From Trichuris trichiura (Eukaryota > Nematoda > Enoplea > Trichinellida > Trichuridae), in assembly GCA_037903355.1 (NCBI GenBank), contig JBAJFE010000054.1:1-64000 (forward strand): a stretch of DNA of 64,000 nt. Reading direction: 5' to 3'. A model generated the notes under the pieces. It was not told where the DNA came from and made no database searches. It saw only the letters and a list, made by a program, of their open reading frames with translations. Positions 17,205 through 63,482 of the stretch are shown in pieces (the first letter of the stretch is position 1; every line of letters begins with the position of its first letter). The translations under genes and the position numbers were made by a program.

Positions 17205-17205
<1 letters not shown>
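15741..17205. other. Gene-poor interval
   Basis: Several overlapping open frames of 60-115 codons occur on both strands, but none has splice signals or a recognisable domain. A stretch near 16770-16870 with repeated TCGTATAA and CATATAACGCG looks transposon-derived. Confidence 0.4.

Positions 17206-17297
<92 letters not shown>
17206..17297. repeat. ATT trinucleotide microsatellite, about 30 units
   Basis: An uninterrupted run of ATT of about 92 bases ends in an AATATTAATATT tail. It creates artificial poly-Leu, poly-Tyr, poly-Ile and poly-Asn frames on both strands; these are not genes. Confidence 0.98.
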
Positions 17298-17298
<1 letters not shown>

Positions 17299-17778
17299 AT
17301 TAATATTTTGCATGCCCCACAGAAGAAACAAAAACTTGCAATCGTGTGCCGCACTAACTGTAAGTTTTGACTTGTGCAAGGGTCAGTTGTCTCGCAGAAG
17401 CAGAATTTCATGTTCGAACTTCGACATTTTTCCTTAGTCATTTCAGAAATTTGAAAAAGCAAGTTAGTACAGGTACGCATCGTTTTACGAAGGTTGATAC
17501 GTCTGGAAAATTTGTTTGTTAAGAGAAACCTTCGTAAACTGAGAAGGGAGCTCATTTATCTAACGTGCCAGACGAGTTTGTGCATACAAAGTTTGGAAGA
17601 AAACCATTCAACAGCGCCGCTGACGCAAAATGAGATACAATATCAAGAAACGTCCCATAGACATACTGAGAACCGCGAGAATTTTGAAAGAAGAGCCACA
17701 TGTAAAGTGGAAATACCGTAATTGCAATGTTGTTCCAGTTTTGAACACGGGGTGTTTCTTAACGGGGCAATGGATTTT

Positions 17779-43942: not shown

Positions 43943-46562
43943 TGACGGGAAACCTATAATTTGAATAACTACGGAGCAAAGTCAAGTGCAGCAAAATTAA
44001 AAAGATACAATGTGGCGTTTTAGCCAGACAGTAAAGGGGTAACTGGTAAAATGCTGCAGCATATTGCGTGCAGTTTGCGCAGCTGAATCAATCAGCGCTA
44101 AGTTGGAAGCACAGAACAGAAATGTTGCTATCCTTCTATCGTTTAGTTTGTTTTGCTTTGGAAAGGCTCCACCGGGCCCAAAAGCTCTGGGCTTTTCTAA
44201 GTTTCCTTGTTTTTTGTTAAAATAGCATATCGTAACTTCTTTCATGAAAATCCGTCACAAGACGTCCTATGTTCAAGCTTTTGTTGACACATAAATTGTA
44301 CGCTGCACAGGCCTTGTTCATGTGCAAGCGGTTATGATAAGCTTTCAGTCACATATTCTCGTTATGTGTCACGTTACAAATCAAGTAAGCATTATTTTCG
44401 ACGCAAGATACAAGAGAGCAAGTTAGCTGTGCGCAAATTTTAAAAACTAATCTTCTTGACATGCATTTTCACAAATTTGCCTGCAGCGACCTATCCAACG
44501 CTTGTGCGTCAGATAGCTTTGTTCCCATTCAATGAGAGTAAAGTACTTACTTTTGCTTAGAAATTTAACAATGTTGTTGAACATACAGTACGTCTCAAGT
44601 CCCGCCCTCTGCTTAGGAATTATTGCTAATAATTTCTGTTAGATTCTGTGCCGACTGCAGGTGTTTCTTTAAACAAAACAGATTTCATTAATGGAAAGCT
44701 CCAGTTAGAAGCATACGTGCTACAGCGAGGAGGTATGCTTTCTGTGAGCCAGAATTCCAATATTTAATTTGACCCCATAGTTCACAAACAAAGTTATCAG
44801 CCAATAATTGCTTCAAAGTGGTCTAATTTAACGGGCATATGCGCTTTGTTCCCGCGTCGCTTATTGAGACAGAGATGACCGAGGTTTTTTGTTAATATGA
44901 GACATTGTTTCCCTGTATATAACCAGTATGCCTTGCGGTGGCACCTTCTAAAGATTTTTTATTTTACAGCTCCTTGTTACACACTCGAAAGAGGCGGAGC
45001 AGTACTTCTTTAATCATGCTATTCCATTACCACAACAAACAATAAACAATATTAATTCCATACAACGTTACTTACTCCTGAAATTAATAGGTCATTTTCA
45101 ATCAAACAGAACTGAGAAGACTTCGTAAAAGAATAGCTGGTAAGTAGGTGATCAGTTGATCAAGGACACAAAAGCGTTTCACGGCAAACTGCTGAGGAAA
45201 GTAGGTGGTGATTATCATATTCAGCTTTTCTGAAAATTCGACTTTATCAGTCAAATTAGCTGCAGATGCTAAAAATGAGCTTTGTATTGCCATGACAAAC
45301 TGAATTTAATTCTTGAATAACAAGGAACATCATTAGGACTCAACAGCCTTAGCCCTGCTAACTTCGTTATTAACTCACGCATGATAAATAAACTAATGTG
45401 CTACTTCTGCGACTGTCTTTTTCGTTTATGAAAAAACTGTTCTTCTCATTGATTGCCACATAAACTGGAAAACAAGGTAACAACAAAAGAAGTTACACTT
45501 ACCAAATCTCAGCATGCAAGTGCTAAATAGGAGAGAGTAAGAAAGTTTCCTTGCACAGCCGCCAATAAGGAAACGCAATCAGAAGAGAAGAATTTCATAC
45601 AGACGAAATGTTCTTCTGCTGTTTGGCATGATTTAAGACGAGTGAAGATAACGTGGTAAAAAAATTTAGTTTTCTTACCACTTACCAAACTGAAACGTTT
45701 TCTAAAATGGGAGTGCTAAACGTATGATAAATTCAGCTGAGTTCGCAATAGTGCTTTTTCTTTCTGACGGCGGAGTTCACTAGTTTTGAGTGCATCACAC
45801 TTTGTCTCTTATCTAACTTGGAACGCTCTTAATTGAGGACGCGTTTTTAATTTCCTGTATTGGTTTCTTTCCTTCTGGTCGAATAGAGGCTACCTTGTAA
45901 CGGACACCTTGTGACCAGAATAAACAAAAGCCCAAACACTAATTGACAGAAGACGTAGAGGCTGGCACTTCTTTTATTTTTTTGGCGCTAGAGCACGTCA
46001 ACTAGGAGTTAGCAGCACATATTCACAAATGCGGCTAAACATGTCTCTCCCTTGATGTCCACAGTTCGCTAAGCTTTTATTATTATTTCTTAAATTCATC
46101 AGCTAACCCTTATCTCTATGCCTATTACGTCTACTTAGCAGCTAACACTGATTTTGTGTTCATAGCACCTTGAAAATTAAAATCTAAAATCTTGCGTGGA
46201 CGGATTAGAGATTAGTGCTTCTTGGTACATCGTTACGTAAAACGCAACTTGTCTCATTTGTGTTAATGGCAACTGGGTAAATTAAGTTAGTTCAACTGTA
46301 CAGTCACAGAAATCTATTCTTGCACGTAATGCTACATCCATGCTGCCTACACGAATTTTTTCGAAGATGCTTAAAGCGCAACAACAGCAGGTGATAATGC
46401 GGTGGGCAAACATGCCATTTGCGTCATGTTTGCGCATTACCAGCTGCTCTAATGCTGCAACTAGGATAGGATATTGACCATTTTACCCTAAACAAACGCA
46501 GAAGAGGAAAAGCAATAAAGATTGAAAAATTGGCAAATTAGGTTTGTGAACTTCAGTGGAGC

Positions 46563-46601: not shown

Positions 46602-46688
46602 ATGGACCTCGTTCAAATTGGTTTAATTTTCCTGCTCCTCTTAGTGTCTTATTCTTACCCTGGTCTCATACTATCAAAGATAGCAAAT
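46602..46688 (+). CDS. Signal-peptide first exon (micro-exon gene)
   Basis: 29 codons: MDLVQIGLIFLLLLVSYSYP then GLILSKIAN, followed by the ideal donor AAT/GTAAGTACT in phase 0. Phase and position suit the downstream cassettes, but the intron would be 5 kb. An alternative leader-like frame starts at 50973 (hydrophobic LLVLVIFALLTSVL) but lacks a good donor. Confidence 0.6.
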
Positions 46689-49600
46689 GTAAGTACTGAA
46701 AACATAGCTGAATAGCTATAGCTCTTTGGAAACTATTCCTTATAAATGTCATATCAAAAGGGGTTAAAAGATATTCTCTAGCGATGAGACAGTAAAGATG
46801 GGAATAACCTTAATTTTGGCAGTCGGTTGATTCCATAACAACGTGATGAAAAGATAACTAAGCTGACAATATTCTTATGATATGTATGCACCGAGTCCTT
46901 GCCCTGTTGTTTCCTCCAACCCCGCAAGTAGGCATTGTCCGCACAAGCCATGCGCCTTTAAAACGTTCTGCTCTCATGGCCTACTCGTCATCATCTCGCT
47001 TTCTAATTCCTAGCTTTATGCTTTCGTATAAATCGAGAGAACTGTAACGATTATTTCTGTCTAATGAAGCAGGCGAGTGCCTTTGGCCAAAGTACTAAAG
47101 CATTTCGCACACGACATTATTTGCCAGTGGAGTAGCAGAAGCTTCTTTTTCTGCGAAACTTTTCCTTAAGGAAAACAAATTTATTATTCTTTGAAATTTG
47201 TTACAGAGTTTGCCTGCTATAAGTAGTATATTTTATTTGAAATCACGATTAACGTACTCGGAGCTTTCCGGGCGTTCTTCCCCCGTCATCAGCAAACAGA
47301 AAAATATAAACGGTGAATTGCCAGCATGAAATGCAGAAGGGTGGGAAAGAATGATATTCTTGAAGAGGTTGGATGATTTGTAAACTTTGAACCATATATT
47401 CATTTTAAAGTTGTTGCCTGGTATCTGTTCCGTCAAGCTCTCATGCTGAAGATGGGTCGAGGCCGAAATCGGAAAGCTCCGCGCTTAAAAGTTACTTTTT
47501 TGAACACGCCCTAGCGCAAGTAAAATAAATTTTAAAGCACTGTCAACCCGTTACGAAGTGTTACACGTCCAATGAAGATACTCGGATCTTCTCATTGAAA
47601 GCTGTTCGAAGAATCTTGCTCTCTGTAGAAACCTTGCGCGGTCAGCGATTCCAGCTTTATTGAATACAGGATGCTTCATGCCGGATATATATCTTGACGA
47701 GATTTTTTGTGGGTGCGTCTGATCCACTAGCTAGGCCAGTCTTAAAATTGAAGCCCCTGTCCAAAAGTGTCTGAATTACTTGCACACGACGTTGTAGCTA
47801 AAGGATCCTCATCTTAGGTTTCACACAAAATTCGTGTAGTCTCGGCTCCCGCCTTCACTTGGTCAAAGAATGAAATTATGTAGAGCATAAATGAACGACG
47901 TGACGCTGCCTGGCAAACGAACAAAAGGCATAAATCTACGAGCAAAACAGAGCGTTTTCGTGGGCGTAAGGCAAATATTCAGTTGATATATATTACCATA
48001 TCGACAGCAGAAACGTAGGTATAATGCTATACATAATGTAGGCAAAATTTTGAGCGGGCAAATTCATGCAAAACTTAGTGCATCTGTTATACGGAAACGT
48101 AAATTCTTTATTTTTCGTTTCTTCTTTAGGGGGTGCAATATTAAGAATTTAAACAAAGAGCATTACTTAAAGAAACTCCATTTGCCCGATGTTGACCTTC
48201 CTGCATTAACTGACACATTCGGTTGCATAACTTCACATGAACTACAGAAAAACCGCAGAAATTGTTGTCTTGGAGTAACTAGTCTCAGCGTACATATTAA
48301 CACGATCTTTGTTGAAGCTTCAAACAAAAAACTCTAAACGGTTGAAACCAGTACACCCCGCTAGGTATTCGGTTATCCTCTTCCTCCATTCCAAAAATGG
48401 GAAGCTTTTCGTTAAGATAATTTTGCACTGATGTTGCGTGATAAGTGCCCCATAAAGCATAAATCCAAAGTCAGTCGCTGTCACGCAAAGCGTCTTTTTC
48501 TTCTTTAGCCTCTCCACATACAATGTCTTTCAGGCAGCTTCTACAGTTTTATAATATGAACCTCCATCAGTTCCCGTCTCTGAGAATTTATTTATACTTT
48601 AACGTAGGGTTTTGCTTCAGCTATCAAGCAGAAATAGTAGCAGCTCATTTATAGACGCTCTGTGGGAGAACACTTGCGCCAAGAACGAAGGCTTCGATCC
48701 ACTGAACTGTTTACTGATGTAAGCGAGTACACGATAGAGGAAAGAGACCCCGTTTGGGGAAAACAATGCCTCCTTATATAAGGCATGATGATCCTATTAG
48801 GGGGGTGACTGAGTTCACTTTAGCGCGACCTGGTCATCGGTGCGCGTTTGAGGGACCACATGCCGCGGTCACTCTCGCCCTGAACGCTGGTCACTGCACC
48901 CATTAAGGTGCGACCACGGTTGGGCCACTCTGGCGCGAGACTTTTCAGAGCGGTCTTCACGCTGTCCGTCCTCGCTCTGTGCCCTGCGGGATTCATCCTC
49001 CTGCTGGCACTGCCACACGCTCAGCAAAAATAGGAACCAAGGAAGAACACACATTACCTTTTGTCCCCCCGTAGACAACAGAGTTCACGTATCGTTTTGT
49101 GCCGACGTAAAAAAATCTTATATGGTTGGCCATTCACAAAATATGCAAGAGCTGTATCTAGGCATTTCTAGCTTTCCAGTCAAATTAATCAATTAAAAAC
49201 ATTTTGCTGGCAGGGTTTTCATGAATTCCCCCTTTTTCATTATATGGCAGCACTCTTGTTCTAGCGAACATGGCAATTACCATCTTTTGATGACCCATTG
49301 CTAAAGGATGATAAGGTAAAGTCGTTATATGCTTTTGCTGTTCCTCTTCACATCATTAGTAAAGACTAAGGATGCAGGCAGTTTTTGTGTTTTGCGGTTT
49401 AGTCCGTTTTTTCTTTTACGTCTTTTATAGGTGTGACCGTTAGATTCAGAGCTTCCATGACTCACGTGAGCCATTGTCAACAAGAACTTTATCACTCGCT
49501 GGACTAGGTTTCGCTATTTACAATCTCATCTGTCTGATTGACTTTTGCAAGGATCTCAGCTCCACTGTGAAACTTTGAGCGTCAGTCAGAACCGACGGAT

Positions 49601-52600
49601 ATCACGTTTGCTTGATTGTTGTCGTTCATGCGTCGTTGTATCGTTGCGGTGGTCGGTCGGTTCAGTGTTTGCTCTGACGCCTGACAGATGTGGCGGCCTA
49701 GCGCGTGACAGCTTACGATAGAGCTGAGAGCAGAGGTCTTTGCCAAACTATGCAAGGCAGATTAGCGTGCAATTACTATGACCAAACCCAGTGAGAGACA
49801 GACTTTGTTGATGATAGGTCACGCGAGATCTGGAAGATTTGAAACTGACGATCTCATCAATAAAAGATGTAAAAGGAAAACGGCTTAAACCGCAAAAAGA
49901 TAGTAGTCATACAGGAAACCTTTCGCGAATGTTGTAGAATTATGATGATCTAATCCAGCCATTCCCAACCTTTTCTGCGCTAGGCTCCCTTTGAAAGGTG
50001 TCCACGGGCGGCAGACCTCCCCTTTTCCTATTGGTCGATTAATTTTTGCGTTTTTTGTGTAGCAGCCAATCAGCTTTCAATGGCAACTTTCCAGGATCAA
50101 GTTAATGCACTGATACAATGCGAATATACAGTCGTCAAATCATTTGAAAAGAGCACTTGGGGTTCTTCGAAACTAACAATGAAACCACTTCGTCGAGTCG
50201 AGTGAGAATTTCTGCCAATCCTCTATAGAGGGATGTTGCTAACGGTTACCGATCCTCTATAGAGGACTGGCATAAATTCTCACCCTACCGATCTACCTAA
50301 CTACGCCTGTTCCAATAAGGCCTCTCAACCCCCCTTGACGGTCTCCTGCCCCCCCCCCACCTTCTGAAAAATTTTCGATTGCGCCCCCTGACACCCTCTC
50401 GGCCCCCCTGGGGGCCCCAGGCCCCACGTTGAGAATGGCTGATCTAATCTGTGCAATGTGTATGAGCTATATTTAAAGGACATTCTTTGTCGCTGCATCG
50501 CTGACTTAAATTTTTGTATTCTTCCGAACAAGTGGAACTTGTTTATAGATTCCTTTTACGATAGATAAAGCTGTTTTGTTTCCATGAAAAAACCTTTAAT
50601 TCGCAGTAGTTCAAGGCGCTCCTCGCCCCAACTTCAACGCAGACTAAGGCATAAACGTTACTTTCGGGATGCGTTGGAGTCCTAAAGGAAAAAGCACGTG
50701 AGTTTATGCATAACTGACTATGGAATTCACTGAAGGTTCTAAAGGTTCTTAATGGTCCTAAAGGCTTTGAGATGTGCTGCCGGTGTTAGCATCTAGGCCA
50801 GATCAACTGGCAGTTAGGATCGCTAGGTCAGAAAATTTCATAGTAGTTGTAAGTAGCACTGATATGTTTAAGACAAGAAAGACTGCTTCGCCTTAGCCGC
50901 TGTATTAATATGTCACATCCTGTTGTTTTCGCTGTTTCAAGCATATATATTTGTTCTTGTGTAGTCCTTTAAATGACCATTACCTCTAAATACATTGAAG
51001 CGCGAGACTCCTTTCTTCGACTCTTAGTATTGGTTATCTTTGCACTGCTTACTTCTGTTTTAAAAACTTGCTCGCGGTTATGAAACTTTCCGGATCGGGG
51101 TATTTCGAAATACCCTAGCAAGGTATTTTGCCTTTTTTCTGATTTATTCTCCTCAACAATACAGCGTTATTGCTGATAATATTTTCAGCATGAAGTTAGC
51201 TTCCTGTGTATACGAACTAAAACATACAGCACTTTACCGGTATAAGAGCTCAGCTCTTTGATACAACAGTGCCAAATATGATTTCTCTGACTCACTGCTT
51301 CGTTTTACAACTGCCCATTTCAGAATAATAAGCATTCTCATTTCACAAAACTAAAGTAGTTGTACACGGCAAGGTACCCTTATTGTTTTTCTCTGACTTA
51401 CTAAGAAAGATGCTTTGCCTGATTTACTCCCCTCAGTTCTTTAGTGTTATTATTAACAACATTTTAAACATGGAGCATGCTTCCCCCTTAACAAGCTAAA
51501 GCATATAAAGCTTTTTCCAGTATAACAGTTCGGATGCTTGATATGACAATGTCAAACTCTTCGAAAGAACTTTAATTTTGGTAAGACTAATACACACAAC
51601 TTACGCTGGAAGAAATTTAATCCGCATTATTTGAAAGAACTTAATGTCTTCAGCTTCTTGGCGCTTCCAAATTTGCCGCATGTTTCCATTTTATGAATAG
51701 TGATTCTTACCATTTTAGAAAATCGACAAACCGACTAGTCCAGGCAAGGTACTTTTCTTTCTTCCTTTTGTAGAGAGTACGCAACTTAATTTCGCTCATA
51801 TTCTGTAACACATTGAGGTGACCAGTATATTATGAAACGGTCAAAATGCTCGCCTCAAAACTGAGTACGTAGGTTTCAACATACGAAATGTAATTTATAC
51901 ATTCCCGCTTGACGTGTTCCCTTTTCTCTTTGAATCCAGTGCCTTTTCATGCTTATCCCCTTGCTCTAATGTATATGTTTTAGGGTTCGCACCAGAAGTA
52001 CGATGTAAGTTGTTCCTAGTCTACTCCTAAAATGTCTGCTTCGTATATACTTACGTACACCGCGTGATCAAGTGGTCAATGTCGGAAAGGTACAGTGAAA
52101 ATGCTTAACCGTGAAAGAAAGCAAGTAGAGGTCAATAATTCAAAGTGAACTACTGGTGATGCTCCACAAGCAACGGAAGTTTTAACGGCTAAACCTGGAA
52201 TTTCATCGCAGCTAACTTGTGCTATCCGTTTCGGCTTACATCCATCTTTTCTCATTCCGTAGACCTTAAACTCAGTCGAATCATCTTTCGGTCAGACTGT
52301 TAAATTTCGTTAAGCAAACTGACTACTAATGCTGTCACTGAGCGCAAAAAATGTTTTGTTGCTACAAGCCTTTTCTCCTAGACCGTTCAGCTGCTACGCT
52401 TACTGACGAGTAGTTCTATCAACAAGCTTGAACATCATTACGGCGTGAATGCAGAGCAGTCATTTCAGTAGATTCTTTACTAAATACCTTGTGGTTTAAC
52501 CGTATCTGCTCTACTTTTCAGACACTCCACAAGAATGGGGAAAACGTAAGAACTTATGTTACGCCACATGAAAGATCTCAGTGGCGATCATATTCGCAGT

Positions 52601-55600
52601 TTTAACTTTTTTTATGTCTCATAATTATGAAATTGCCTTAGATTTTGTCTAGCAAACATGAGGAGGTCTCGCACACGGTTTACTAGACAAGTCACAAGGC
52701 CTCAGTGCAAATAAATGTTAGGAAACTTTGCACGTTGTAGGGGCCAACTCAAAAGGAAAGAGATGCACTGCTTAAAATGCAAGAAGAATTATTGGCGCGA
52801 GTTAAAGATTACAGGGAGAAATGTTATCCGATGCCAAAGGATGGCTGCAGCTGTATAGAACGAAGACGCGTGCACAGATACGATACGGATGAAGAATGTA
52901 GAGGAAAGGTAATTGCTCATTGGCTGCTTTTATAAATTTGAATTCAGTCTCAAATACCCGCGTAGTCATGCAGGCGACGTAATACCATTTTTACAAGTGG
53001 CGCCCTAATCTTTTTCATCTCCTTTCAATCGCCTATTTTTCAGAGGCTCATCGTCTGTTATTTGCTTAAGCTGTTGAAGCATACTTTAGCCTCAGTGCTG
53101 GCATTACATGTTTAGTTAGGACCAATTTTGATTGGAGTATCCGCCTAGCTTCCTGCAATTACTATGCTTTGCTTTTAAGCTTCTCATTCACTGTAACTGT
53201 GCGTTAGCAGGTTTCCAATGACGAAACAACGAATAACTAGCAGGATGCATAAGTTGCAGTACTCCTCGGGTGGACGGGAAAGCTGAGAACCTGGAATTTT
53301 GAATTTCAACTATCAGCGACTCTTGTGCAGTTTTCTCAGGGTCTATCTACCGGGAATTCACGAGCACGGACCTTTCGACACCAGCCGTACTGTTCAGCTA
53401 AACGGCAGCAATTTGTTCTCTCCCCACTCCAGGGTTTCCGCAGTCCATTTTTCGTTGGTGTCCTTCTTTTATCTTTCGGTCAAGCAATGGCTACAGAGCA
53501 CGAAAATGGCCATTTCGAGGTGGTATATAGTCCTGTACCTGAGAATTCATGGAAACGATTTGGCTGTATGGATGTACTACGTGCACTATGAAAGTGCTTG
53601 GTAAACTCATACCAGCAGGAAGCAGAAGATTCTCGAAATAGCATAACAATGTCAAAGAAAGTCATCACCAGTGGGCAAAAATCTATGAAAATGAATGACA
53701 AGAAACATTCAGTTTTCAATTTTGCACATGCTTTTATAGACAACAGGTTTATGCAACTTCATGCTAATGGAGTAGCTTTCGGAAAGTTTTTACGTAGAAT
53801 GAACGGTTTGAGGATTTTAATGATGGGTAGTAATTTAAATAAGAAAAATCTGAGTAGTTTAGGGCAAAAAGGGGCTGATATTGGGGCGTCTATCATGAAC
53901 AGGTAATAGAAAAAGCATCGCATATCGGTCGCCCTATTCATTATCCGTAATGGTGTTGAAGCAATGATGACTCTTCTTTTACCTCTTCTTCTTTATTTGT
54001 TGCAATCCAGTCACGACTTCAGGGAATAGGACGCTTAACCTTTCTCCTAGTCCTGTATTACGCAGTTAAACGCTAATACTAAAAATACATGAAAATTTTT
54101 CCCTATTAGTTACTGAGACCTCACTGCTAGAGGAAGTAGTAATTCGTAGTACGAAATGGATAAGAATTCCTTATTTATTTATTCGATTGTTTACAATGCG
54201 TAGCTGAAGTACGGAATGCCCAGCCTGTGAAAACGTTTAACAAGCGAACCTTTCGGCTAACCGCTGTTCCCGTCTACAGTGCAAGCGTAAGACGGGAACA
54301 GCGGCTTCTCTAAAGCTCTGAATAATGAAAGTTTTTACAAGCTGAACATTCCGTACTTCAATTTTGCGTTTGCACAGGCCTGTTAGAAGGAGTTTCGTTT
54401 TTATGTATGAAATAATGTTCACAAATGAATGCCATAAAATTCGGTTGGGAACAGACATTGGTTTTATAACTTTGCTTATGACTGGGGACAATCAAAGTGT
54501 TAAATTTTTTTTGTACTGTTGGACTGCACTAATCCAGCAACCTCGCTAATTAGATAATATTTTCTGAGACAGCTAGCAAAGAGATAGTCAAAAGTTACTG
54601 TCAGCGAACAGGTAAGCGCAGATTACGCTACCGCCAGCGTTCCTCACTAAAGTGACTCTGAGATAGTGAAAGGCATTGTAAGAGAGAAGAAAGAAGAAAG
54701 TAGTGATCACAGTAGGAGAAACGCAGCAGAGAGAAACTCTGCTGGCGGGTTAATTCAACTGATCGACAAACTGTTAAAATGTTTTGAGCAACCCAGTTTT
54801 GTAACTGAACAGGAAATAATGAATGAAAAGAAATGACTTTTTAACGTTGTTTTTGATCTTCACGTGCATGTTTTTTATTACGGAAGGGTACAAAGCCTTT
54901 ATTTTTATTTACAAATAACTAGTCCTTCGAAGCTTTCAGTGCTTTTCATGCTCCGTTGTCAACGATAACAATAGCAGGATTTTTTATTGTTATTGTTGAT
55001 AACGGAGCAAAAACAGCTCTGAAAGTTTCGGAGCACTCTTTATTGGTAAGTGAAAATAAACGCCTCGTACCCTTCAGTAATAAAAAACACGCACAGGAAA
55101 TACTGAATGTTTATATGCTGCACTTTAATTTCAGAAAGACAGAAATACATGAAGCAGCTTCTTGCGTAACACGTTCAAAAAGACGGCTAGAATAGAAACA
55201 CAAAAACAGACATTCCAAATTTTAGCGCTATCTACTTCCCATACTCAGGAAGTTCCCCCGTCATCATCGTAAGCTTTTAAGTCCCCTGTCAGATTACAAA
55301 CTGAAGGTACTGGTTGTGACAGCTCACCATCTCTCAGCCCCAAATTCTACAAAATTGTATTGATAAAGTTAGGTTCCTCGCTTATGAAATGTAGGTAACG
55401 CATTTTCCCGCTAAAGGAAAGAGATAATGTACTATCTTTTGTTTCGCTTATTCGTCAAAAAGTTTCTCACACTTCATTTGACGTTTTCTTATTTCTCTCA
55501 CCTGATCTTGCAAACTCTGTCAAAAATTTAGTAGAGTAGGGAAAGTAGAGCAAGCAATCCGGCGCGCCCATTCCGCAAGTACCAACACACTATTGCTAAT

Positions 55601-58600
55601 CCAACAAACCGGATATAAAAGCCGTATCGGATCGGCCAGATCCACCTGTATGATACTCTTATAAAAGCGTACATATAAAACTGGTGGAAATGATTACTGT
55701 TTCTATTTCAGCTACCAGAAAGTGCCCACGAAAGCCCATCCATTGAGGTATTTTTTTGTTTTTCAATTTTACTTTAAAAATGCTTCATACACGCCATATT
55801 CAATCAATGAGGTTATATTTTCCCCAATCTAGATATTATAACAATGCAGAATAACACTAACTACACCATCGTTAAACAGCTACGTTATTTTGGGATGTTT
55901 TGTTAGTACTGTTGTGACAGTTTTTTTCTTTGGAAATTCAGGGTGTTGGCGAAAAGTAATTGACTCGTAAGGATAGACAGCTGACTGTGCTTAGAGAGCT
56001 TCAGCTGACATTTGAATTTGAACGCTTAATGAACTAAATAATCTTTTGATGAATCAGAAATGATTCTGTTTCTGCATTCCAGCTACCCACCAACTGGACT
56101 CGACCGACTGGACCTACCAAGGTACTTCTATTTTACTTCAAAAAGTGTGAACAGAGTGGACAGCATGTTTTCATGCATTCTGTCTATTAAAAAGTTAAAA
56201 AATGTTTCCTCTTGAATTTTGCATAGTATCAGTTGGTCTTTCACGGGCTGCAAACGTTTTGCGAGCGCTTTATCGTTTGCGTAGCCAAATTTGCGCTCAA
56301 CATAAGAAAATATTTGCCTAAGAAAAAACGCACTCCACAGAACACAGACTAAGTTTAACCCCACCTTTGTCCTAAAATGCCTTGAACAGCACAAGATATT
56401 GCTCTTCTTTCAAGCAGAAAAGGCTTTCACAGGTGGCATGTTTGATTTGAACAATTTCCCCTGCTGATTTAGTGTGACATTCAACATGTAGCAACAAAAT
56501 TACTCACCTTTAAAATAGTATGTGCCTCCAGCAAAGTTTGAAAAACCACGTGACAGTTCATCTGTCCAAGGAGGGGCAATCATTGTTTTAAAACGCCCAT
56601 TTTCTCTTTACCAGTAGTGTCAATTACCATTTGAATGAAAGTTTGTAGGAGATAAAACACTAAATAAGCTTTTGTTCGAAAAATTCGTCCAAAATATCTG
56701 TGCTCTCAAATAGTGACCGTTTTATTTTCAGGATCCCACCAAGCCGACTGGACCTTCCAAGGTATGTCCTTCCTTTTCAATCTAAAAAACTCACGCAAAT
56801 TTTTAAACAACATCTATCAGTCTGGCAAGTGCAAACGCCTACTCTGCTAATAGTGCAGCAGATAAACTCTGTGAATGAATATCATATCCGCATAAAAAAT
56901 CAGGAAGCTCAGTTTATGCTTCATCACTTACTAAGGAGAAAGACGCAGACAAGGACAAGGTCTTTTTGCAAGCTAGCTTTCACGAAAATCAGCATTTTTT
57001 CCACATTAAGTTATGAGATTTCATGCAACCCTTGCAAAAAGCCACAGCGCAAAGCATAGTTTGCAAAATTGTTTTCGTAACCTATTGTTGACATAAACCG
57101 TTTCTCGTTTCTAGATACACTGACTGACTGACTAAATGCACGTCACTGATCTCTCACGTTTATTTTAGGATGCGCTGAAGAAATATGGAGTAAGTCACAC
57201 GCTTTGTCGTGACACATGTCTGGCGAGCTCACGTAACTTCTCAAAAACTACAAAAGAATGCATGGTGGGAAATATACTGAACGGGTGCATAGATAATATG
57301 CACGCTGAAGTCACAGACAGTACCTATCAGAAAAGGAAGTCATGAAAGCAGAAAGAGAGAGTTGTTCCAGCAACATTGCACTTTGTATTACCTTTAGCCA
57401 TCTTTCTTGTTCCGCCTTCACTAGATTTAGCCAGACACTAGCCAGCTGCACACCACCACCTGGCAAGTGCAATGCTAGCTGACATAGGAGTCATTTCCCT
57501 ATCTGCAGACTGCGCGTTTCAAACATGTAACTAATAGCTTAAGTAACTGCCGGGCGCCTCTGGCATTTCTTCTACCATTATAGCCTAAAAACACCAAGCC
57601 GAATGTTTCTTTGAAAAGCAGTTTTTGATTTATTGATTTGTCTTCTATTTTTTCAGGCTCTTCGCGACGATGTAAGAACTCACACTGTACTGCATGAAGA
57701 GAACGTTAACGTCTAATGGCGTGCATGTATACAACTTGTAACCTTTTTTGTCCCATCTGCATTACGAAATGACATCACATCTTATCAAGCAAGAATGGCT
57801 GAGTCTTCTCATATGGATTACTGAATATGATTAGAAACCTGATGACAATTTTTAAGATTTTTGTACATTGCAGGGCCCAACAACAAAGGAAAGAAATGCC
57901 AAGGCTGAGGTTCAAGAAGAGCTGATGGAGCGAGTTAGAGGCTACAGGCGGAGGTGTTACCCTATGCCAGTTGACGGATGCAGATGTGATGAAATACTAG
58001 GATCAAAGAGATATGCTACAGATGAAGAGTGTAGAAGAAAGGTAATTGTTCGTTGATTGCTACTGCTGGTAAGCACGCAGTCTGAGATACCTGCAAAGGT
58101 AAGATGATGACATGCATTTATTTTCACTTGGTGAAGCCCTATCAGCAGCTCACCAGTAGCATGCTCACGTAAGCAGGGTGTAATATCAGGCTGCCTAACA
58201 CATTATTTAGTGAAACAAAGCAACTGAATGTGTGAGTGCATTCACACAAGCTATGTCAACGTTAGTGCATTCTGAGTTCCTATTGGAAACACAGGGAGGC
58301 TTTCATGAGTTTTTTCTCCGCGTTAAAGCTCTGTAAGCTTGTAACTGTCACTCAGTAGGGCTGCACTCGCAAATTCAACGCAATGCAGTCAAATAATTAG
58401 TCACGTATTCTGCCACCAAAAATGGAGAACTGGCACTATCGCATAAATTACTGAAGTAAACACTAAAATGGCTTCAATACACTGGAATCTCTGTTAACCG
58501 TATTCTGACAGAAGAACAACGAATTGACTGCACGTAGCAAATACGTTCAGGCTCCAACCCCACCACGTATTTGAAAGAGTCACATGTGTAATTCTTAAAG

Positions 58601-61600
58601 CAAATAAGTTTTCTGCCATTTCTGTTGGACAGAAATGTCTGCTTTACTAAATTGCAAACTGTGTGCCCTTGCTTGCTCAGTCGCTACGCTTTTCCAAAAT
58701 GAAACGCTCTTCGCTTCACTATCATAAAAACTGCCAAGACAAATTTAGGCTTTCCTAAGCTGCCTTTTGCCTTACAACTGCAACGCCATGATGTACGTGC
58801 AAACGTTTAGGTTTTTTCTCTTGTGCTACTTTTACTTTAGCCTAACTCAATAACTCCATTTTTTTCTCAGCATAATAACATCTAAATTAACTTTTATAAC
58901 ACGAGCTCTATTTCGATTTCTAAACCATTACTTTAATAGCCTACACTTAATACGAAATATTGAAAACAGTGAATGTGGCTTTCATTCTTGTTAGGCGAGA
59001 GCGAACAGATGCATATTAGGAACTCTTTTTTGTCCTGATATGCTCTGTTGTTGGTCAGGTCGCCAGAAGCTTAAATATGTCCATCCCGTCTCTACCATCA
59101 ATACTTTTACAAACATAGAAGTTTTCCCTAATGAACATTATGGCGCACTGCGGTCCAGCTGCTACCTATGAAAAAGTCATTCTTGAAAACAGCAAGACTT
59201 GTTTACTTAAACATTGGTTTGGATAGGGAGAGAGATCTCGACAGTATCGCTTGTCTTGAAAATTCTACATTTTATACCAGTGAACATAATTATTTTTCTC
59301 ATTTCAGCCAGAACACGGAAGCAATACAACAACTCCAACCAAAGTAATTTCCATTTTTCATTTTGATGGATCCTTCCTATGTGCTCTTGCTCAGTCTAAA
59401 TAACAACATTTCACTGACACGTTAAGTCGCAAGTGCTGCTATGGAAAATTTATGCTTCACGTAGGAAGATATTCGTGAGGCAGATGGAAACTTAACATTT
59501 CTTTTGAAAATTTAGCAGGCAAAAATCTGTATTCCAATCTAGTGAAAACGATAAGTTTCCCTACTTCTCTGAAAGAACCAAGCTGCTTCTTCCCAAAACT
59601 GCTTTAGACGCATTCTTTCATTTCAACATCCTCTCGTAGTTCGCAGTCTGAATGATAAGACTAACCTGCTTCAGCGATTGCAAAGAGTAACTTTAATTTC
59701 AAAGTGAAAAACATTTCCTGATGAACTTTGCATTTCCGTCGCCTTCCTGATTTATAAACGGCAAGAAACACTTTCTGAGCACTACTTTCTTCGCGCCCCT
59801 AATTAGTATACTTTGTGTAGAAAAAGATTCACCTCAATAGGTTTGCCAGTAAGTCGAAGCCATAGTCAGTAGGCTACGTTATAGCCGTTGACTTTAACAT
59901 AGTCTACAGGTTGTTCTCTCAAAAATTCATCGCCGCCGTAGATCACGTAATCATGACTGCGTATTTCAGAAACCTACCACGCCGGTTGGACCTAGCAAGG
60001 TACTGTTTCTGCTTTAGAAAGACATTGCTCACGTTATTTTTAATTTAAATACTAGATTGATTCTTCTTATTTCTTTTCTTCTCACGCTTTAGAAAGTCAT
60101 TGCTCACGTGATTTTTAATTTAAATATTAGATTGATTCTTCTTTTTTCTTTTCTTCTCTCCTTTCTAACGGGTGCGTTATTCAGAATAAAAATTTTTGCG
60201 GCTTTGCTACCAGTTCGTTAGTTAAAAAACGTTTATTTCAAACGAATAACCCGCGGAGCTTTCGGGCCACACCGGGGCCCGTCATCAGCGCTAAGTGCGC
60301 CCCGTTGTGGCCTGAAAGCTCCGCGGGATATACGTTTGGAATAAACGTTTTTTAACTAACGAACGGGTAGCAAAGCCGCAAAAATTTTTACTTTAAATAT
60401 TAGATCTCGCTTTCCAGCTTAAGTACATTTATTAATATGTGGCAATGCAATCAGGGTTCTTCAAGGTGGATATTGCTTATTGATTAAATTAAAGATGTAT
60501 CACGGTTAGTTGGGACCAGCATGGGCAGTCATCCTTTTAAAATTTTCATATCTTTAACGCAAGCAACATTTCTCTCGTAGAAGAAAATCGGAACTAATAG
60601 CAAATAAAACGATGGCCACGCAGTATCACTCAAGCGTCCACATTTTCAGCCAGTAAATGTTCTCTTTATAGGGACACACCAATGCCACTGGACCTAGCAA
60701 GGTACTCCACGTTCTTGCTTGCAAACCTAAACAAACGTCTCACTTAACCTGAATATGTCTCTCAGTCTTGAAAAAATAGTAGTTTATCCAGTATAAGCTA
60801 ATGCGCGTAAGACGTTTCTCCACATCTCGTGACCCACAAAGGAAACCTACATACAACTGTTGTTTAGAAATGTTCTCGAGAACGATCTCCACATAAACTG
60901 ACCATTCCCCATTGTTTTTTCCCTGGCTGGCTCTACTTTACTGAACTCTTCTTTTTTAGGCCAAGCTGCAGAAATACGGAGTAAGTCAGAAGGGATATAC
61001 TCCATAAACCTTCTCGTCGACTCCACATAATACGTTTTCTGATATTACAACTGTCAGATGAAAAAACATGCACCACAGCAGGGAACCTCTGATCAAATAG
61101 ACTGCAGGCCAATTGTGATACGCAAGAGGAAAAAGATACAATTCTTTCCATCCAGCTCTCTCCTTCTGTTGCAACATTTAGTCAGTGTTTTCATTCCATA
61201 GGCGGAACATTCACTGATACCTTAGCCAGGCAAAACTCTCTGCTCATTTTAAGGGAACATCTGATTGACTTAACCTGTGGAGATAAGTATCACTTCTGAT
61301 ACTTGCAGACTGCTTATTTGAATATGTGACCAGTCGATTTGCCAATTGTAGGTTCCTCACTAGCTGCTTTTTTCGTAATTACTCCTTTTAAAATGCTTCA
61401 CATGAAATCTCGTCCCCTCAATAATTTTTAATTTACTAATTTGCTTTTTATTTTTCAGGCTCTTGGCAATGATACAGACGTAAGAACTTATTTTACACTG
61501 CATGACATGAGCGCAATCGCTAAACGGGGCGCACATACACAGCATGTACCTTCTGTTTCCCATTCTGCATTACCCAATGGGACCGCACCTTAACAAGCAA

Positions 61601-63482
61601 ACATGCTGAGTCTTCGCATTCAGACAACTGAATACAATTTGAAATCTGATCATGAGTAATTGTTAGATTGTTTTTCCATATTGAAGGGCCCCTCAACAAA
61701 GGAAAGAAATGCCAAGGCTGAAGTGCAAGAAGAGCTGATGGAGCGAGTTAGAGGCTACAGGCGGAAATGCTACCCTATGCCAGTTGACGGATGCAGATGT
61801 GATGAAATACTAGGATCAAAGAGATATGCTACAGATGAAGAGTGTAGAAGAAAGGTAAGAATCGTTTAGTCACTGCTATTGCATGTACGTTTTCCGTCAG
61901 AAATACGCGCATGAGCATTACTCGGATGTAAGTAGTTTTCACTTCGTGAAGCACTATCCATTCATTCCGTGCGCCGCTGCAACTGTCTGCTTATTCAAAC
62001 CCTATGACAGACCCTTTAGTGAAACTAATGAACCTGCTTTCGCATGAGCAATGGCAAAGTTCGTTTACTGTACCTTTCGAATGGAAGGATTGCATGCAGT
62101 TTCTTTATACAGTCCTGCACCCAAAGGAAACACATCGCTTTCCATAAGATCCACTAAGGAAATCTGTAGCTATGGAAATGATTTGAGACTGGAAACACTA
62201 AGTAATCCAAGGACACAAATGGTCGGATGGCAACGTTCATGGAAATGATAAGATCAGTTTGTAAAAGGCCTCCAGTTGCCATTCGTGTGTTTAGATAACA
62301 ACGATGGGAATGGAATAGTTCGATGCTGCTGATGTTAAGTAGAGACTAGTTCCTTACGTTAACTATGGGACGAAGCGGACAATTGCTGAGTAAGCTACGC
62401 AGTACCATGACTAGCAAGAAAACTCCAACGTAAACACATTTGACTCTTTACTTCTTTGCGCAAACGCTCGATGAATGGTTCCTTTTGACAAACGCCACTG
62501 ACCCATCCAGACACTAAGCAGTATGCGCCAAAATTTGCAACAATCGTAAGGTTGTGCATAATATCTGCTGGAATTTTAAAACACCTTGAATTCTCACCTC
62601 CATAGTTGACCGTCTTTGATCATTGAAGCTTTTGATTCGTCCATTCAGAGTCCCGCTTGATTGACTATATTGGCATTACTCTAAGCTTCAGCTTATTTAT
62701 CGTGGCCAAAATGCATTTCAGTCGCCTTGATCCTGAGATGAACAGCTTCACTCTGCATTTTCTTAAAGCTGGCGTCGTATACAACTATTTTTGCTATGAA
62801 AAAGTGGGTTGATCCTGTTATTGAATCATTACCATATTACCTTCCACTTTCTGTTCAGTTTCCCTCTCGCTTAACACGCGTTAGTGAGTGATAATTACAC
62901 TGCCTATAGCTAAGTATAACTTCATGTGCTTACGATGCTCCAACCCCATTTTGACCGTGCCAAACACAATAGCGTTCCAGAGTAGAAGAACGTGTTTTGC
63001 ACAAACAGATTATTACTTCGTTTAAGCAGGATAGCACGTTTCTCGCCCATTAGATTGCTGGAAAAAGCAGCTCCCTGTAATGAATGCAATGCTTCTTTGC
63101 TATTTCACAAGTCCGCATTGGCATCAGTTTAGTCTGTTTTGCCCGTGATGACTTTTTATTGGGATGAAGGGTTACCGAAAGAGCGAAATTACTTCAGAGA
63201 ATTTGCGACTGTTAAATTTGATCAGCAAACATTGAGACTGAAAGGACATGATAATGTCTCTGATCAGCATAGCAGACCCCCTATACCCTCATATGCTTTA
63301 TCCAGCATGCAGAAAGATTTGAATCTTTGCTGTCATTTCCAGCTGGCCCTTCCCGTACAGTAATGTCGATTTCTTCTGTCAATCAAGTGGTCAACTTTAA
63401 CTAACATTAACGTTTCATACCAACGCAGAGGAAATGCTGGAGAGCAACTAAGGCTTTGAGAGCTGAAAAGCTCAAGCTGTGA
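46602..63482 (+). CDS. Micro-exon gene: secreted protein with three four-Cys modules
   Basis: Proposed join of 18 exons: 46602-46688; 51719-51748, 51984-52004, 52522-52545, 52741-52908; 55712-55747, 56083-56121, 56732-56761, 57169-57189, 57657-57671, 57874-58041; 59308-59343, 59970-59999, 60672-60701, 60960-60980, 61459-61479, 61687-61854; 63429-63482. Total 999 nt, 332 residues and a stop. Every internal exon is a multiple of three and starts in phase 0. All introns have GT...AG, mostly GTAAG or GTAC donors and T-rich TTTCAG acceptors. The product has a signal peptide, then three repeats of [Pro/Thr/Ser-rich linker ending PSK or similar; x4-K-Y-(G/D); short acidic peptide; 56-residue four-Cys module]. 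Such symmetric short exons behind a leader are the hallmark of schistosome micro-exon genes. The three cassettes support each other, so the internal exons are firm. The first and last exons are less certain. Function unknown; a secreted host-interface protein is a guess. Confidence 0.75.
47237..47495. repeat. Diverged foldback in the first intron
   Basis: The left arm with CGGAGCTTTCCGGGCG and CCCCGTCATCAGC mirrors the right arm with GCTGAAGATGGGTCGAGGCC and GAAATCGGAAAGCTCCGCG. The arms pair imperfectly around a 150-base centre. Same family motifs as at 60188 and 42985. Confidence 0.5.
48869..49054 (-). CDS. Possible small secreted acidic/basic protein, unknown
   Basis: A 61-codon minus-strand frame starting MCVLPWFLFLLSVWQCQQED, a good signal peptide, then a highly charged region (SRRAQSEDGQREDRSEKSRA). 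The region is G/C-rich compared with its surroundings. It lies inside the proposed first intron of the micro-exon gene on the opposite strand. No splice or polyadenylation support; it may be repeat-derived. Confidence 0.25.
   Translation of the reverse strand: MCVLPWFLFLLSVWQCQQEDESRRAQSEDGQREDRSEKSRARVAQPWSHLNGCSDQRSGRE
49388..49898. mobile_element. Short element with 40 bp terminal inverted repeats
   Basis: TTTTGCGGTTTAGTCCGTTT, then TTTCTTTTACGTCTTTTA (49388-49427), is mirrored with six or so differences at 49861-49898 (TAAAAGATGTAAAAGGAAAA, then CGGCTTAAACCGCAAAA). About 510 bp with no coding capacity; a miniature inverted-repeat element of unassigned superfamily. Target duplication not clear. 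Confidence 0.65.
49956..50441. mobile_element. hAT miniature element with perfect 8 bp target duplication
   Basis: Ends CAGCCATTCCCAAC and GTTGAGAATGGCTG are inverted repeats, bounded by an exact duplication ATCTAATC at 49948-49955 and 50442-50449. The 486 bp interior has the G/C-rich right subterminal run (CCCCCCTGGGGGCCCCAGG) and an AGCCAATCAG string also present in the larger hAT element. Non-autonomous and apparently recent. Confidence 0.88.
50202..50283. repeat. Nested inverted repeat inside the hAT miniature element
   Basis: Arms 50202-50231 (GTGAGAATTTCTGCCAATCC, then TCTATAGAGG) and 50254-50283 (its near-exact complement) are separated by 22 bases. Each arm contains its own palindrome CCTCTATAGAGG. 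Confidence 0.85.
51107..51540 (+). repeat. Diverged tandem duplication with decayed micro-exons
   Basis: Segments near 51107-51250 and 51413-51540 align loosely (GATTTATTCTCCTCA / GATTTACTCCCCTCAG, AACATTTTAAACATGG-type and ACATACAGCACTTT / GCATATAAAGCTTT). At 51347-51373 lies a 27 nt in-frame copy of a linker micro-exon ending GGCAAG/GTACCC, whose acceptor reads TTTCAC instead of TTTCAG, so it should not splice. A weaker remnant ending CCTAGCAAG/GTATTT lies at about 51108-51122. Confidence 0.5.
51719..51748 (+). CDS. Cassette 1 micro-exon a, KIDKPTSPGK
   Basis: 30 nt between CCATTTTAG and GTACTTTT. Aligns with DPTKPTGPSK and KPTTPVGPSK of the other cassettes. Confidence 0.8.
51984..52004 (+). 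CDS. Cassette 1 micro-exon b, GSHQKYD
   Basis: 21 nt between TATGTTTTAG and GTAAGTTG. Counterpart of DALKKYG and AKLQKYG. Confidence 0.8.
52522..52545 (+). CDS. Cassette 1 micro-exon c, TLHKNGEN
   Basis: 24 nt between CTACTTTTCAG and GTAAGAACTTA. The same donor string follows the counterpart exon of cassette 3. Confidence 0.75.
52741..52908 (+). CDS. Cassette 1 cysteine exon (diverged copy)
   Basis: 168 nt, 56 codons, acceptor CACGTTGTAG and donor AAAG/GTAATT. Begins GPTQKERDALLKMQEELLAR, with a charged helical-looking half. It then has CYPMPKDGCSCIERRRVHRY and ends TDEECRGK. Cysteine spacing is C-x7-C-x-C-x14-C, as in the other two copies, but many other residues differ. TDEEC recalls the end of Kunitz domains, but the rest does not fit that fold; domain unknown. 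Confidence 0.85.
53437..53906 (+). pseudogene. Interrupted open frame, possible secreted-protein pseudogene
   Basis: After a plausible acceptor (CTCCCCACTCCAG at 53436) one frame stays open for 156 codons apart from a single TGA at 53589-53591. It starts with a leader-like stretch (FFVGVLLLSFGQAMA), then ENGHFEVVYSPVPENSWKRF. After the stop it continues KCLVNSYQQEAEDSRNS and a lysine-rich part to TAA near 53906. The same frame is also open upstream to ATG at 53325. It lies between cassettes 1 and 2. No family recognised. A chance frame is possible, but the length with one stop is unusual for this base composition. Confidence 0.3.
54927..55032. repeat. Foldback in the intron between cassettes 1 and 2
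   Basis: TCGAAGCTTTCAGTGCTTTT, then CATGCTCCGTTGTCAACGAT AACAATA, pairs with TATTGTTATTGTTGATAACG, then GAGCA and CTGAAAGTTTCGGA, around a 10-base loop. The outer GAAAGTTTCGGA / AAGCTTTCAG matches the family arm motif. Confidence 0.75.
55712..55747 (+). CDS. Cassette 2 micro-exon a, LPESAHESPSIE
   Basis: 36 nt between TTCTATTTCAG and GTATTTTT; phase 0. Confidence 0.65.
56083..56121 (+). CDS. Cassette 2 micro-exon b, LPTNWTRPTGPTK
   Basis: 39 nt between CTGCATTCCAG and GTACTTCT. Shares the RPTGPTK ending; contains an NWT sequon. Confidence 0.75.
56732..56761 (+). CDS. Cassette 2 micro-exon c, DPTKPTGPSK
   Basis: 30 nt between TTTATTTTCAG and GTATGTCC. Confidence 0.8.
57169..57189 (+). CDS. 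Cassette 2 micro-exon d, DALKKYG
   Basis: 21 nt between GTTTATTTTAG and GTAAGTCAC; same donor as its cassette 3 counterpart. Confidence 0.8.
57657..57671 (+). CDS. Cassette 2 micro-exon e, ALRDD (15 nt)
   Basis: 15 nt between TATTTTTTCAG and GTAAGAACTC. The shortest exon here, recognised because sequence and flanks match ALGNDTD in cassette 3. Confidence 0.72.
57874..58041 (+). CDS. Cassette 2 cysteine exon
   Basis: 168 nt, acceptor TACATTGCAG and donor AAAG/GTAATT. Begins GPTTKERNAKAEVQEELMER, then CYPMPVDGCRCDEILGSKRY, and ends TDEECRRK. Differs from the cassette 3 copy at only two of 56 residues. Confidence 0.9.
59308..59343 (+). CDS. Cassette 3 micro-exon a, PEHGSNTTTPTK
   Basis: 36 nt between TTCTCATTTCAG and GTAATTTC; NTT sequon present. 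Confidence 0.72.
59970..59999 (+). CDS. Cassette 3 micro-exon b, KPTTPVGPSK
   Basis: 30 nt between CGTATTTCAG and GTACTGTT. Confidence 0.8.
60011..60160 (+). repeat. 75 bp tandem duplication within an intron
   Basis: GCTTTAGAAAGACATTGCTC at 60011 and GCTTTAGAAAGTCATTGCTC at 60086 start two nearly identical 75-base copies. They lie between cassette 3 micro-exons b and c and duplicate no exon. Confidence 0.9.
60188..60389. repeat. Foldback element in a cassette 3 intron
   Basis: The left arm AAAAATTTTTGCGGCTTTGC to CCGCGGAGCTTTCGGGCCAC mirrors the right arm GTGGCCTGAAAGCTCCGCGG to GCAAAGCCGCAAAAATTTTT. The centre is CCCGTCATCAGCGCTAAGTG. Very well-matched arms of about 90 bases. Inserted close to the 75 bp tandem repeat. 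Confidence 0.9.
60672..60701 (+). CDS. Cassette 3 micro-exon c, GHTNATGPSK
   Basis: 30 nt between CTCTTTATAG and GTACTCCA; NAT sequon present. Confidence 0.78.
60960..60980 (+). CDS. Cassette 3 micro-exon d, AKLQKYG
   Basis: 21 nt between TCTTTTTTAG and GTAAGTCAG. Confidence 0.8.
61459..61479 (+). CDS. Cassette 3 micro-exon e, ALGNDTD
   Basis: 21 nt between TTATTTTTCAG and GTAAGAACTTA; NDT sequon present. Confidence 0.78.
61687..61854 (+). CDS. Cassette 3 cysteine exon
   Basis: 168 nt, acceptor CATATTGAAG (less usual than TTTCAG) and donor AAAG/GTAAGA. Begins GPSTKERNAKAEVQEELMER; otherwise as the cassette 2 copy apart from RRK for RRR before the first Cys. If the donor is skipped, the frame stops five codons later at 61867-61869, a possible alternative end. 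Confidence 0.88.
63429..63482 (+). CDS. Candidate terminal exon of the micro-exon gene
   Basis: After CATACCAACGCAG a phase-0 frame of 17 codons, RKCWRATKALRAEKLKL, ends at TGA 63480-63482. It continues the basic end of the cysteine module in frame and adds one cysteine. No AATAAA lies nearby, so the true last exon may lie beyond the window. Confidence 0.4.
   Translation, partial: RKCWRATKALRAEKLKL

What the first reader, a model, noticed from the sequence alone, without database searches (positions are those of the whole stretch)
46602..63482. Micro-exon gene with three tandem cassettes in an apparent nematode
Eighteen proposed exons, fourteen of them 39 nt or shorter apart from the three 168 nt exons and the ends, all in phase 0, sit behind a signal-peptide exon and spread over 17 kb. 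The three cassettes repeat the same exon order (linker exons, KYG exon, short acidic exon, four-Cys exon), which strongly supports even the 15 nt exon. Micro-exon genes with secreted variable products are described from schistosomes; I know of no such gene described in nematodes. Because all internal exons are symmetric, any subset can be skipped, giving many secreted variants from one locus.
Basis: partly seen in the sequence, partly recalled or inferred. Interest (0 to 1): 0.92.

Follow-up and report, generated by a model that had tools for sequence, protein, structure and literature searches.

The report
Whipworm micro-exon gene with four cassettes
A whipworm genome holds a 20-kb gene that is predicted to be spliced from 23 exons, 18 of them only 15-39 bases long and arranged in four repeated cassettes; it would make a likely secreted protein whose linkers could be changed by skipping tiny exons, a layout known from parasitic flatworms.

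Summary
The micro-exon gene is well supported as a gene structure, but the finding's 3' end is wrong. The window is the first 64 kb of a contig from a Trichuris close to T. trichiura. Of the 18 exons as I reconstruct them, 17 stand. The last one (63429-63482) is rejected: the gene runs on outside the window to a fourth cassette and stops at 66501, with poly(A) signals 40 and 65 nt later. The full model has 23 phase-0 exons, 18 of them micro-exons of 15-39 nt. An annotated T. suis protein carries a matching string of micro-exon-like peptides in the same order, which makes chance untenable. One signal-peptide-like start and one terminal poly(A) region argue for one gene. The layout meets a published operational definition of micro-exon genes, so far reported from flatworms. 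Relatives were found only in Trichuris, so convergence is likely. No transcript was available: splicing, exon skipping and secretion are inferred. N-glycosylation sequons lie in the micro-exons (5 of 18) and not in the four-cysteine modules (0 of 4), so skipping would change glycan number and module spacing.

The parts
46551..46561 (+). shared promoter-like box TTAAAAGCAGT, starting 39 nt before the ATG (first base approximate)
   Evidence: same 11-mer starts 41 nt before the ATG of the neighbouring paralog
46602..46688 (+). exon 1, signal-peptide-like
   Evidence: only ATG start with hydrophobic N-terminus and phase-0 donor found on the + strand of 46.5-66.4 kb, 0 on the - strand; resembles the N-terminus of T. 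suis M514_22552
51719..51748 (+). linker micro-exon L1, KIDKPTSPGK, 30 nt
51984..52004 (+). KYD micro-exon, GSHQKYD, 21 nt
   Evidence: T. suis has DLLQKYD in this place
52522..52545 (+). short micro-exon Ac0, TLHKNGEN, 24 nt; no counterpart in the T. suis model
   Evidence: place and GTAAGA donor as in the other cassettes
52741..52908 (+). four-Cys module exon C4a, 168 nt
   Evidence: 45 of 56 residues as in T. suis, 54 of 56 as in T. trichiura
55712..55747 (+). linker micro-exon L2, LPESAHESPSIE, 36 nt
   Evidence: T. suis LPEDAYAIPSVE, 0 of 40 shuffles
56083..56121 (+). linker micro-exon L3, LPTNWTRPTGPTK, 39 nt, holds a sequon
   Evidence: weak match to T. suis (1 of 40 shuffles reaches it)
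56732..56761 (+). linker micro-exon L4, DPTKPTGPSK, 30 nt
   Evidence: identical peptide in the T. trichiura model
57169..57189 (+). KYG1 micro-exon, DALKKYG, 21 nt
   Evidence: identical peptide in T. suis
57657..57671 (+). short micro-exon Ac1, ALRDD, 15 nt
   Evidence: lies in a stretch 80% identical to cassette 3 over 437 columns; T. suis has ALRNND here, a length difference that the shuffle test could not use
57874..58041 (+). four-Cys module exon C4b, 168 nt
   Evidence: 55 of 56 as in T. suis, 56 of 56 as in T. trichiura
59308..59343 (+). linker micro-exon L5, PEHGSNTTTPTK, 36 nt, sequon shared with T. suis
59970..59999 (+). linker micro-exon L6, KPTTPVGPSK, 30 nt
60672..60701 (+). linker micro-exon L7, GHTNATGPSK, 30 nt, holds a sequon
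60960..60980 (+). KYG2 micro-exon, AKLQKYG, 21 nt
   Evidence: identical peptide in T. suis
61459..61479 (+). short micro-exon Ac2, ALGNDTD, 21 nt, sequon shared with T. suis
   Evidence: identical peptide in T. suis
61687..61854 (+). four-Cys module exon C4c, 168 nt; acceptor is AAG rather than CAG or TAG
   Evidence: 53 of 56 as in T. suis, 55 of 56 as in T. trichiura. The gene then leaves the window: cassette 4 at contig positions 64248-66501

Best explanation
The window holds most of one 19.9-kb whipworm (Trichuris) gene that is predicted to have 23 phase-0 exons, 18 of them 15-39 nt, in four repeated cassettes (linker exons, KYG exon, short exon, four-cysteine exon) behind a likely signal-peptide exon, and its RNA is likely spliced into a secreted chain of four four-cysteine modules whose linkers would vary by in-frame skipping of micro-exons. 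Shown: exon sequences, phases, order, conservation and placement of splice-like sites. Inferred: splicing itself (from splice sites and the T. suis protein), secretion (from the hydrophobic start) and skipping (from symmetry and from weak donors on the linker exons). The likely output is a set of secreted proteins with near-constant modules that differ in module spacing and N-glycan number. The likely origin is repeated duplication of a cassette inside a gene that began with one module, made easy by uniform phase 0.
For: Matching string of peptides in T. suis M514_22552; KYG and linker patterns found only in this gene; one signal-peptide-like start, and poly(A) signals within 600 nt only after module 4 among modules 1-4; neighbouring one-module paralog with the same upstream box; cassettes 2 and 3 alike at 80% over 437 columns; donor G at +5 lacking in 8 of 10 linker exons and 0 of 8 KYG/KYD and short exons (counted; Fisher p 0.001); sequons in 5 of 18 micro-exons against a shuffle mean of 0.89 (p 0.0002) and in 0 of 4 modules; T. 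suis 3 in 21 peptides (mean 0.63, p 0.018).
Against: No transcript seen. The T. suis proteins are gene models, one of them with read-through introns and a module of the neighbouring gene fused on (P0002). The T. trichiura model has 1 of 18 micro-exon peptides exactly. Splice signals alone do not set the micro-exons apart well. Ac0 has no T. suis counterpart, Ac1 could not be tested at equal length, L3 is a weak match, and four of 21 T. suis peptides have no supported counterpart. No skipping shown.
Confidence: 0.72

Rival explanations
1. One gene with these micro-exons, but splicing is constitutive: every exon is always joined, and the small symmetric exons are only the trace of how the linkers grew by exon duplication.
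For: No isoform data; KYG1-3 and Ac2 encode the same peptides as in T. suis, as expected of parts that are always used; duplication traces.
Against: Linker donors are weak, linkers differ in number between species, and one T. suis linker has a counterpart here without an acceptor AG, so omission of linkers is tolerated in evolution.
Confidence: 0.33
2. Three or four separate small genes, each with one four-Cys exon, that gene models and the first reader have run together.
For: The next-door paralog has one module; fusion artefacts in helminth annotation are reported (PMC12964723, listing only), and P0002 does fuse the neighbour's module.
Against: Only one signal-peptide-like start on the + strand; no AATAAA or ATTAAA within 600 nt after modules 1-3; modules 1-3 end in GTAATT or GTAAGA donors instead of a stop; two T. 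suis models, one T. suis short model and the T. trichiura model all join four modules.
Confidence: 0.05
3. A decaying locus: the micro-exons are fossils and the gene no longer makes a full product.
For: One linker lacks an acceptor AG, two T. suis linkers have no supported counterpart, and a further module copy at contig 119.6 kb is frameshifted.
Against: All four modules are open and 80-98% identical to T. suis; C4b and C4c differ with dN 0.016 and dS 0.154; the losses concern phase-0 linkers, which leave the frame intact.
Confidence: 0.04

Closest known systems
Micro-exon genes (MEGs) of schistosomes and tapeworms
   Same: Signal-peptide start, most exons very small and divisible by 3, runs of micro-exons, long introns, likely secreted product, lineage-specific sequence (PMC7653826 and PMC4350168, passages; PMC10526429, abstract in listing).
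   Different: Nematode instead of flatworm; no sequence relative outside Trichuris found; the micro-exons alternate with 168-nt four-cysteine exons in four repeated cassettes; alternative splicing not shown here.
SmVAL-6 of Schistosoma mansoni (VAL gene with a MEG-like part)
   Same: A gene with ordinary exons and a stretch of very small symmetrical exons (PMC4350168, passages).
   Different: Different domain and phylum; here domain exon and micro-exons are repeated together four times.
One-module Trichuris paralogs (neighbour at contig 71464-74288; C49 gene, relative of T. suis M514_01453)
   Same: Same four-cysteine module on a phase-0 terminal exon behind a signal-peptide-like exon.
   Different: One module and three exons; no run of micro-exons.

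Membership tests
Micro-exon gene, operational definition of PMC7653826 (passage) | At least seven exons | tested here: met
   23 predicted exons; predicted, not from transcripts
Micro-exon gene, operational definition of PMC7653826 (passage) | At least half of the exons under 70 nt and divisible by 3 | tested here: met
   18 of 23 predicted exons
[quoted passage not shown]
   Runs of 3, 5, 5 and 5 (counted)
Micro-exon gene as described in PMC4350168 (passages) | Signal peptide; product secreted or membrane-anchored | tested here: inconclusive
   Hydrophobic start (best ten-residue mean 3.46) that resembles the T. suis N-terminus; no signal-peptide program and no proteome
Micro-exon gene as described in PMC4350168 (passages) | Most of the coding region in very small symmetrical exons | tested here: not met
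   489 of 1248 coding nt (39%) are in micro-exons; the four module exons hold more. Hence filed as a variant, not as a plain member
Micro-exon gene as described in PMC4350168 (passages) | Alternative splicing yields variant proteins | not testable with these tools
   No RNA reads available
Kunitz-type inhibitor domain (considered for the module) | Six cysteines and a match to the Pfam family (definition recalled) | tested here: not met
   Four cysteines per module; no Pfam family at E <= 10 for three module sequences

The most novel reading that the evidence does not exclude
First micro-exon gene of a nematode: whipworms evolved, independently of flatworms, a secreted-protein generator in which skipping of 15-39-nt exons sets the spacing and the N-glycan number between near-constant four-cysteine modules, so that one locus presents the host with many related secreted forms.
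Probability: 0.4. Interest if true: 0.86.

Novelty: new variant of a known kind. Interest (0 to 1): 0.7.

Why it matters
If transcripts confirm it, the micro-exon layout, described in one paper as apparently restricted to platyhelminths (PMC4350168, passages), also arose in a second phylum of long-lived parasites. What the layout is for could then be asked by comparison, and in the mouse whipworm T. muris, where a two-module relative is annotated. It also shows that annotation can lose such genes: the T. trichiura model contains 1 of 18 micro-exon peptides exactly and a different N-terminus, so a likely secreted protein of a human parasite is probably wrong in that annotation.

Tried and rejected
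Last exon at 63429-63482: rejected, because T. suis continues into a fourth cassette that is present at contig 64248-66501.

Extra exon 53433-53573 of the T. trichiura model: its open frame (53253-53588) holds a hydrophobic stretch but no methionine before it; one full match in the genome (second hit E 0.02 with a stop); I see nothing like it in the T. suis proteins. Left undecided and not counted as an exon.

More linkers: a blind scan for linker-like exons gave 6 on the + strand of the gene, of which 5 are model exons and one a doubtful 51-nt candidate at 49265-49315. A 139-column repeat (68%) at 51139-51276 and 51419-51556 may be the trace of duplicated linker units, but the alignment of possible relic exons was not convincing.

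Literature: micro-exon genes with nematode (11 papers), Trichuris with micro-exon (3 papers) or microexon (4 papers), microexon gene with nematode (9 papers). No title or abstract start listed describes a nematode micro-exon gene; most of these papers were not opened. Passages were read in PMC4413821, PMC6327390, PMC5979966, PMC4350168, PMC7653826, PMC6206011 and PMC8081252. The two genome papers that I looked up by DOI are not held. Supplementary files could not be read.

Full report
Where the window comes from. The window is positions 1-64000 of contig C10 (305,827 bases) in an unnamed 72.7-Mb genome of 62 contigs. A search of 5.8 billion proteins with the predicted product returned five proteins at E <= 10, all from Trichuris: three T. 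suis, one T. trichiura, one T. muris. The four modules match the T. trichiura protein at 54/56, 56/56, 55/56 and 54/55 residues, so the genome is from T. trichiura or a close relative (inference).

The observation. Reading the window gave 17 phase-0 exons from 46602 to 61854: a signal-peptide-like exon, three 168-nt exons and 13 exons of 15-39 nt, all with AG before (exon 1 apart) and GT after. The proposed 18th exon (63429-63482) does not hold. The T. suis protein M514_22552 runs on from the third module through PKNDTAGHSK, EPIGTIKPQQ, RPSKPQSKPSK, ETRETVGPSK, KLLQKYG and AIKRRDKN into a fourth module. The contig shows counterparts at 64248-64277, 64549-64578, 65339-65368, 65594-65614, 66119-66142 and 66334-66501, the last with a stop codon and poly(A) signals at 66541 and 66566. 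A counterpart of RPSKPQSKPSK is present, but no AG stands directly before it, so I did not count it. The full model is 23 exons, 1,248 coding nt (stop included) in 19,900 nt, introns of 191-5,030 nt, 415 aa.

Chance. Splice signals alone are weak evidence: a strict scan gives 22 candidates on the + strand of the gene and 13 on its - strand, 8-19 in the eight strand-scans outside the gene, and a shuffle mean of 9.2 with a maximum of 19. Other tests are stronger. First, I cut the T. suis protein into 21 peptides at module borders and by likeness to the window's exons (T. suis DNA was not seen). For 16 of 21, the best splice-flanked open stretch of equal length on the + strand is reached in 0 of 40 shuffles. 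One (GPFKPSKPTEHQK) is reached in 1 of 40, and four fail: VIKPGRPSK (32), EVTRPRPVRPSK (14), ALRNND (39) and RPSKPQSKPSK (18). Several linkers match a linker of another place better than the one in their own. Second, a KYG-exon pattern made from the three KYG exons, with up to 2 mismatches, finds only those three in the genome, reversed control 0; a linker pattern with up to 3 mismatches finds only L4, L6 and L7, control 0. The hits are there by construction; the absence elsewhere is the result. Third, a blind linker scan (ends in K, two or more prolines, open, splice-flanked) gives 6 on the + strand of the gene, 5 of them model exons, and 0 on its - strand. In 12 further strand-scans it gives 5 on the + strand of 40-60 kb, which overlaps the gene, one on the - strand of 95-115 kb, and 0 in the other ten. 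The 15-nt exon ALRDD rests on its place, on a stretch 80% identical to cassette 3 over 437 columns, and on ALRNND in T. suis.

One gene, not several. A scan for ATG starts with a hydrophobic N-terminus and a phase-0 donor finds only 46602 on the + strand of 46.5-66.4 kb and none on the - strand. Poly(A) signals follow module 4 at 40 and 65 nt and the next-door paralog's module at 49 nt; none lies within 600 nt after modules 1-3. This gene and its neighbour share TTAAAAGCAGT 39 and 41 nt before the ATG.

The family. Next door (71464-74288) lies a one-module paralog that resembles TTRE_0000411201. That entry and TTRE_0000411301 list the same longest-contig length (100,461), as expected of neighbours in T. 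trichiura. A module at 119.6 kb is frameshifted. Contig C49 carries a one-module gene whose predicted 150-aa product matches the 150-aa T. suis protein M514_01453 at 87%. Its second exon is one of 18 similar ones on C49, and only one of these is followed by a module found in that search; so the module exon seems to have moved between genes at phase-0 borders (inference). The T. muris protein has two modules with a KYG-like peptide before each. A profile search reached further one-module Trichuris proteins and nothing outside the genus at E <= 1; both searches need shared five-residue words, so distant relatives may be missed.

What the sequence suggests about mechanism. Donor type goes with exon class: all 8 KYG/KYD and short exons have G at +5, while 8 of 10 linker exons lack it (counted; Fisher p 0.001). 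Weak donors on very short exons favour skipping (general splicing knowledge, not tested here), and every skip keeps the frame. Sequons occur in 5 of 18 micro-exons (shuffle mean 0.89, p 0.0002), three of them shared with T. suis (3 in 21 peptides there, p 0.018), and in 0 of 4 modules. Skipping L1 would itself create one across the joint IAN-GSH (read by eye). Skipping would therefore change glycan number and module spacing and leave the modules alone. C4b and C4c differ with dN 0.016 and dS 0.154; against T. suis the modules keep 45/56, 55/56, 53/56 and 46/55 residues. The module is predicted as a helix, a short strand, a hairpin and a short helix at middling confidence, with no convincing fold match. 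What it binds is unknown; my guess is a host or gut-surface ligand bound several times by the repeated module.

Comparison. PMC7653826 (passages) calls a gene a micro-exon gene if it has at least seven exons, at least half of them under 70 nt and divisible by 3, and a run of at least four. This model has 23 exons, 18 micro-exons and runs of 3, 5, 5 and 5. PMC4350168 (passages) adds that most of the coding region lies in such exons, which is not so here (489 of 1,248 nt), and that such genes appear restricted to platyhelminths. PMC4413821 (passages) finds no antigenic variation of the unicellular kind in helminths. Searches of the library held listed no nematode micro-exon gene by title or abstract start, and six identifiers of these proteins and their loci occur in none of its texts; most subscription papers are missing. 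I therefore call it a variant of the micro-exon kind by structure and leave open whether it behaves as one; convergence is the likely reading.

Verdict. A real and unusual gene, wrongly ended in the finding and incomplete in the T. trichiura model; structure well supported, splicing behaviour inferred.

Noticed in passing
window 60178-60399: Palindromic element in an intron (101-nt arms, 91% complementary). A query covering most of it matched 50 places in the genome, a lower bound that counts both arms at some places: probably a foldback transposon family.
   Followed up: partly
window 54859-55099: Second palindrome in an intron (115-nt arms, 82%); a stretch overlapping it is 71% identical to a stretch inside the first intron of the neighbouring paralog (contig 71877-72150).
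   Followed up: no
window 53433-53573: 141-nt open stretch with a hydrophobic segment, included as an exon in the T. trichiura model but without a methionine before the hydrophobic part and absent from the T. suis proteins as read; may be an extra exon, a relic or a model error.
   Followed up: partly
contig C49:169256-224795, - strand (outside the window; loci L022, L028-L030 cover part): Array of 18 similar second exons (acidic, DSSADSDED-like), several with a similar signal-peptide exon; one copy is followed by a four-cysteine module exon. A tandem family of likely secreted proteins.
   Followed up: partly
window 27112-28858: Two open frames, the first with a BED zinc finger match above the curated cut-off; looks like a hAT-type transposase (type recalled, not tested).
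   Followed up: no
window 33254-33619 and 19445-20458, - strand: Patched/sterol-sensing domain match and a serpentine 7TM receptor of the Srx type.
   Followed up: no
window 17087-17437: Long simple run that translates as poly-Leu on + and poly-Ile on -.
   Followed up: no
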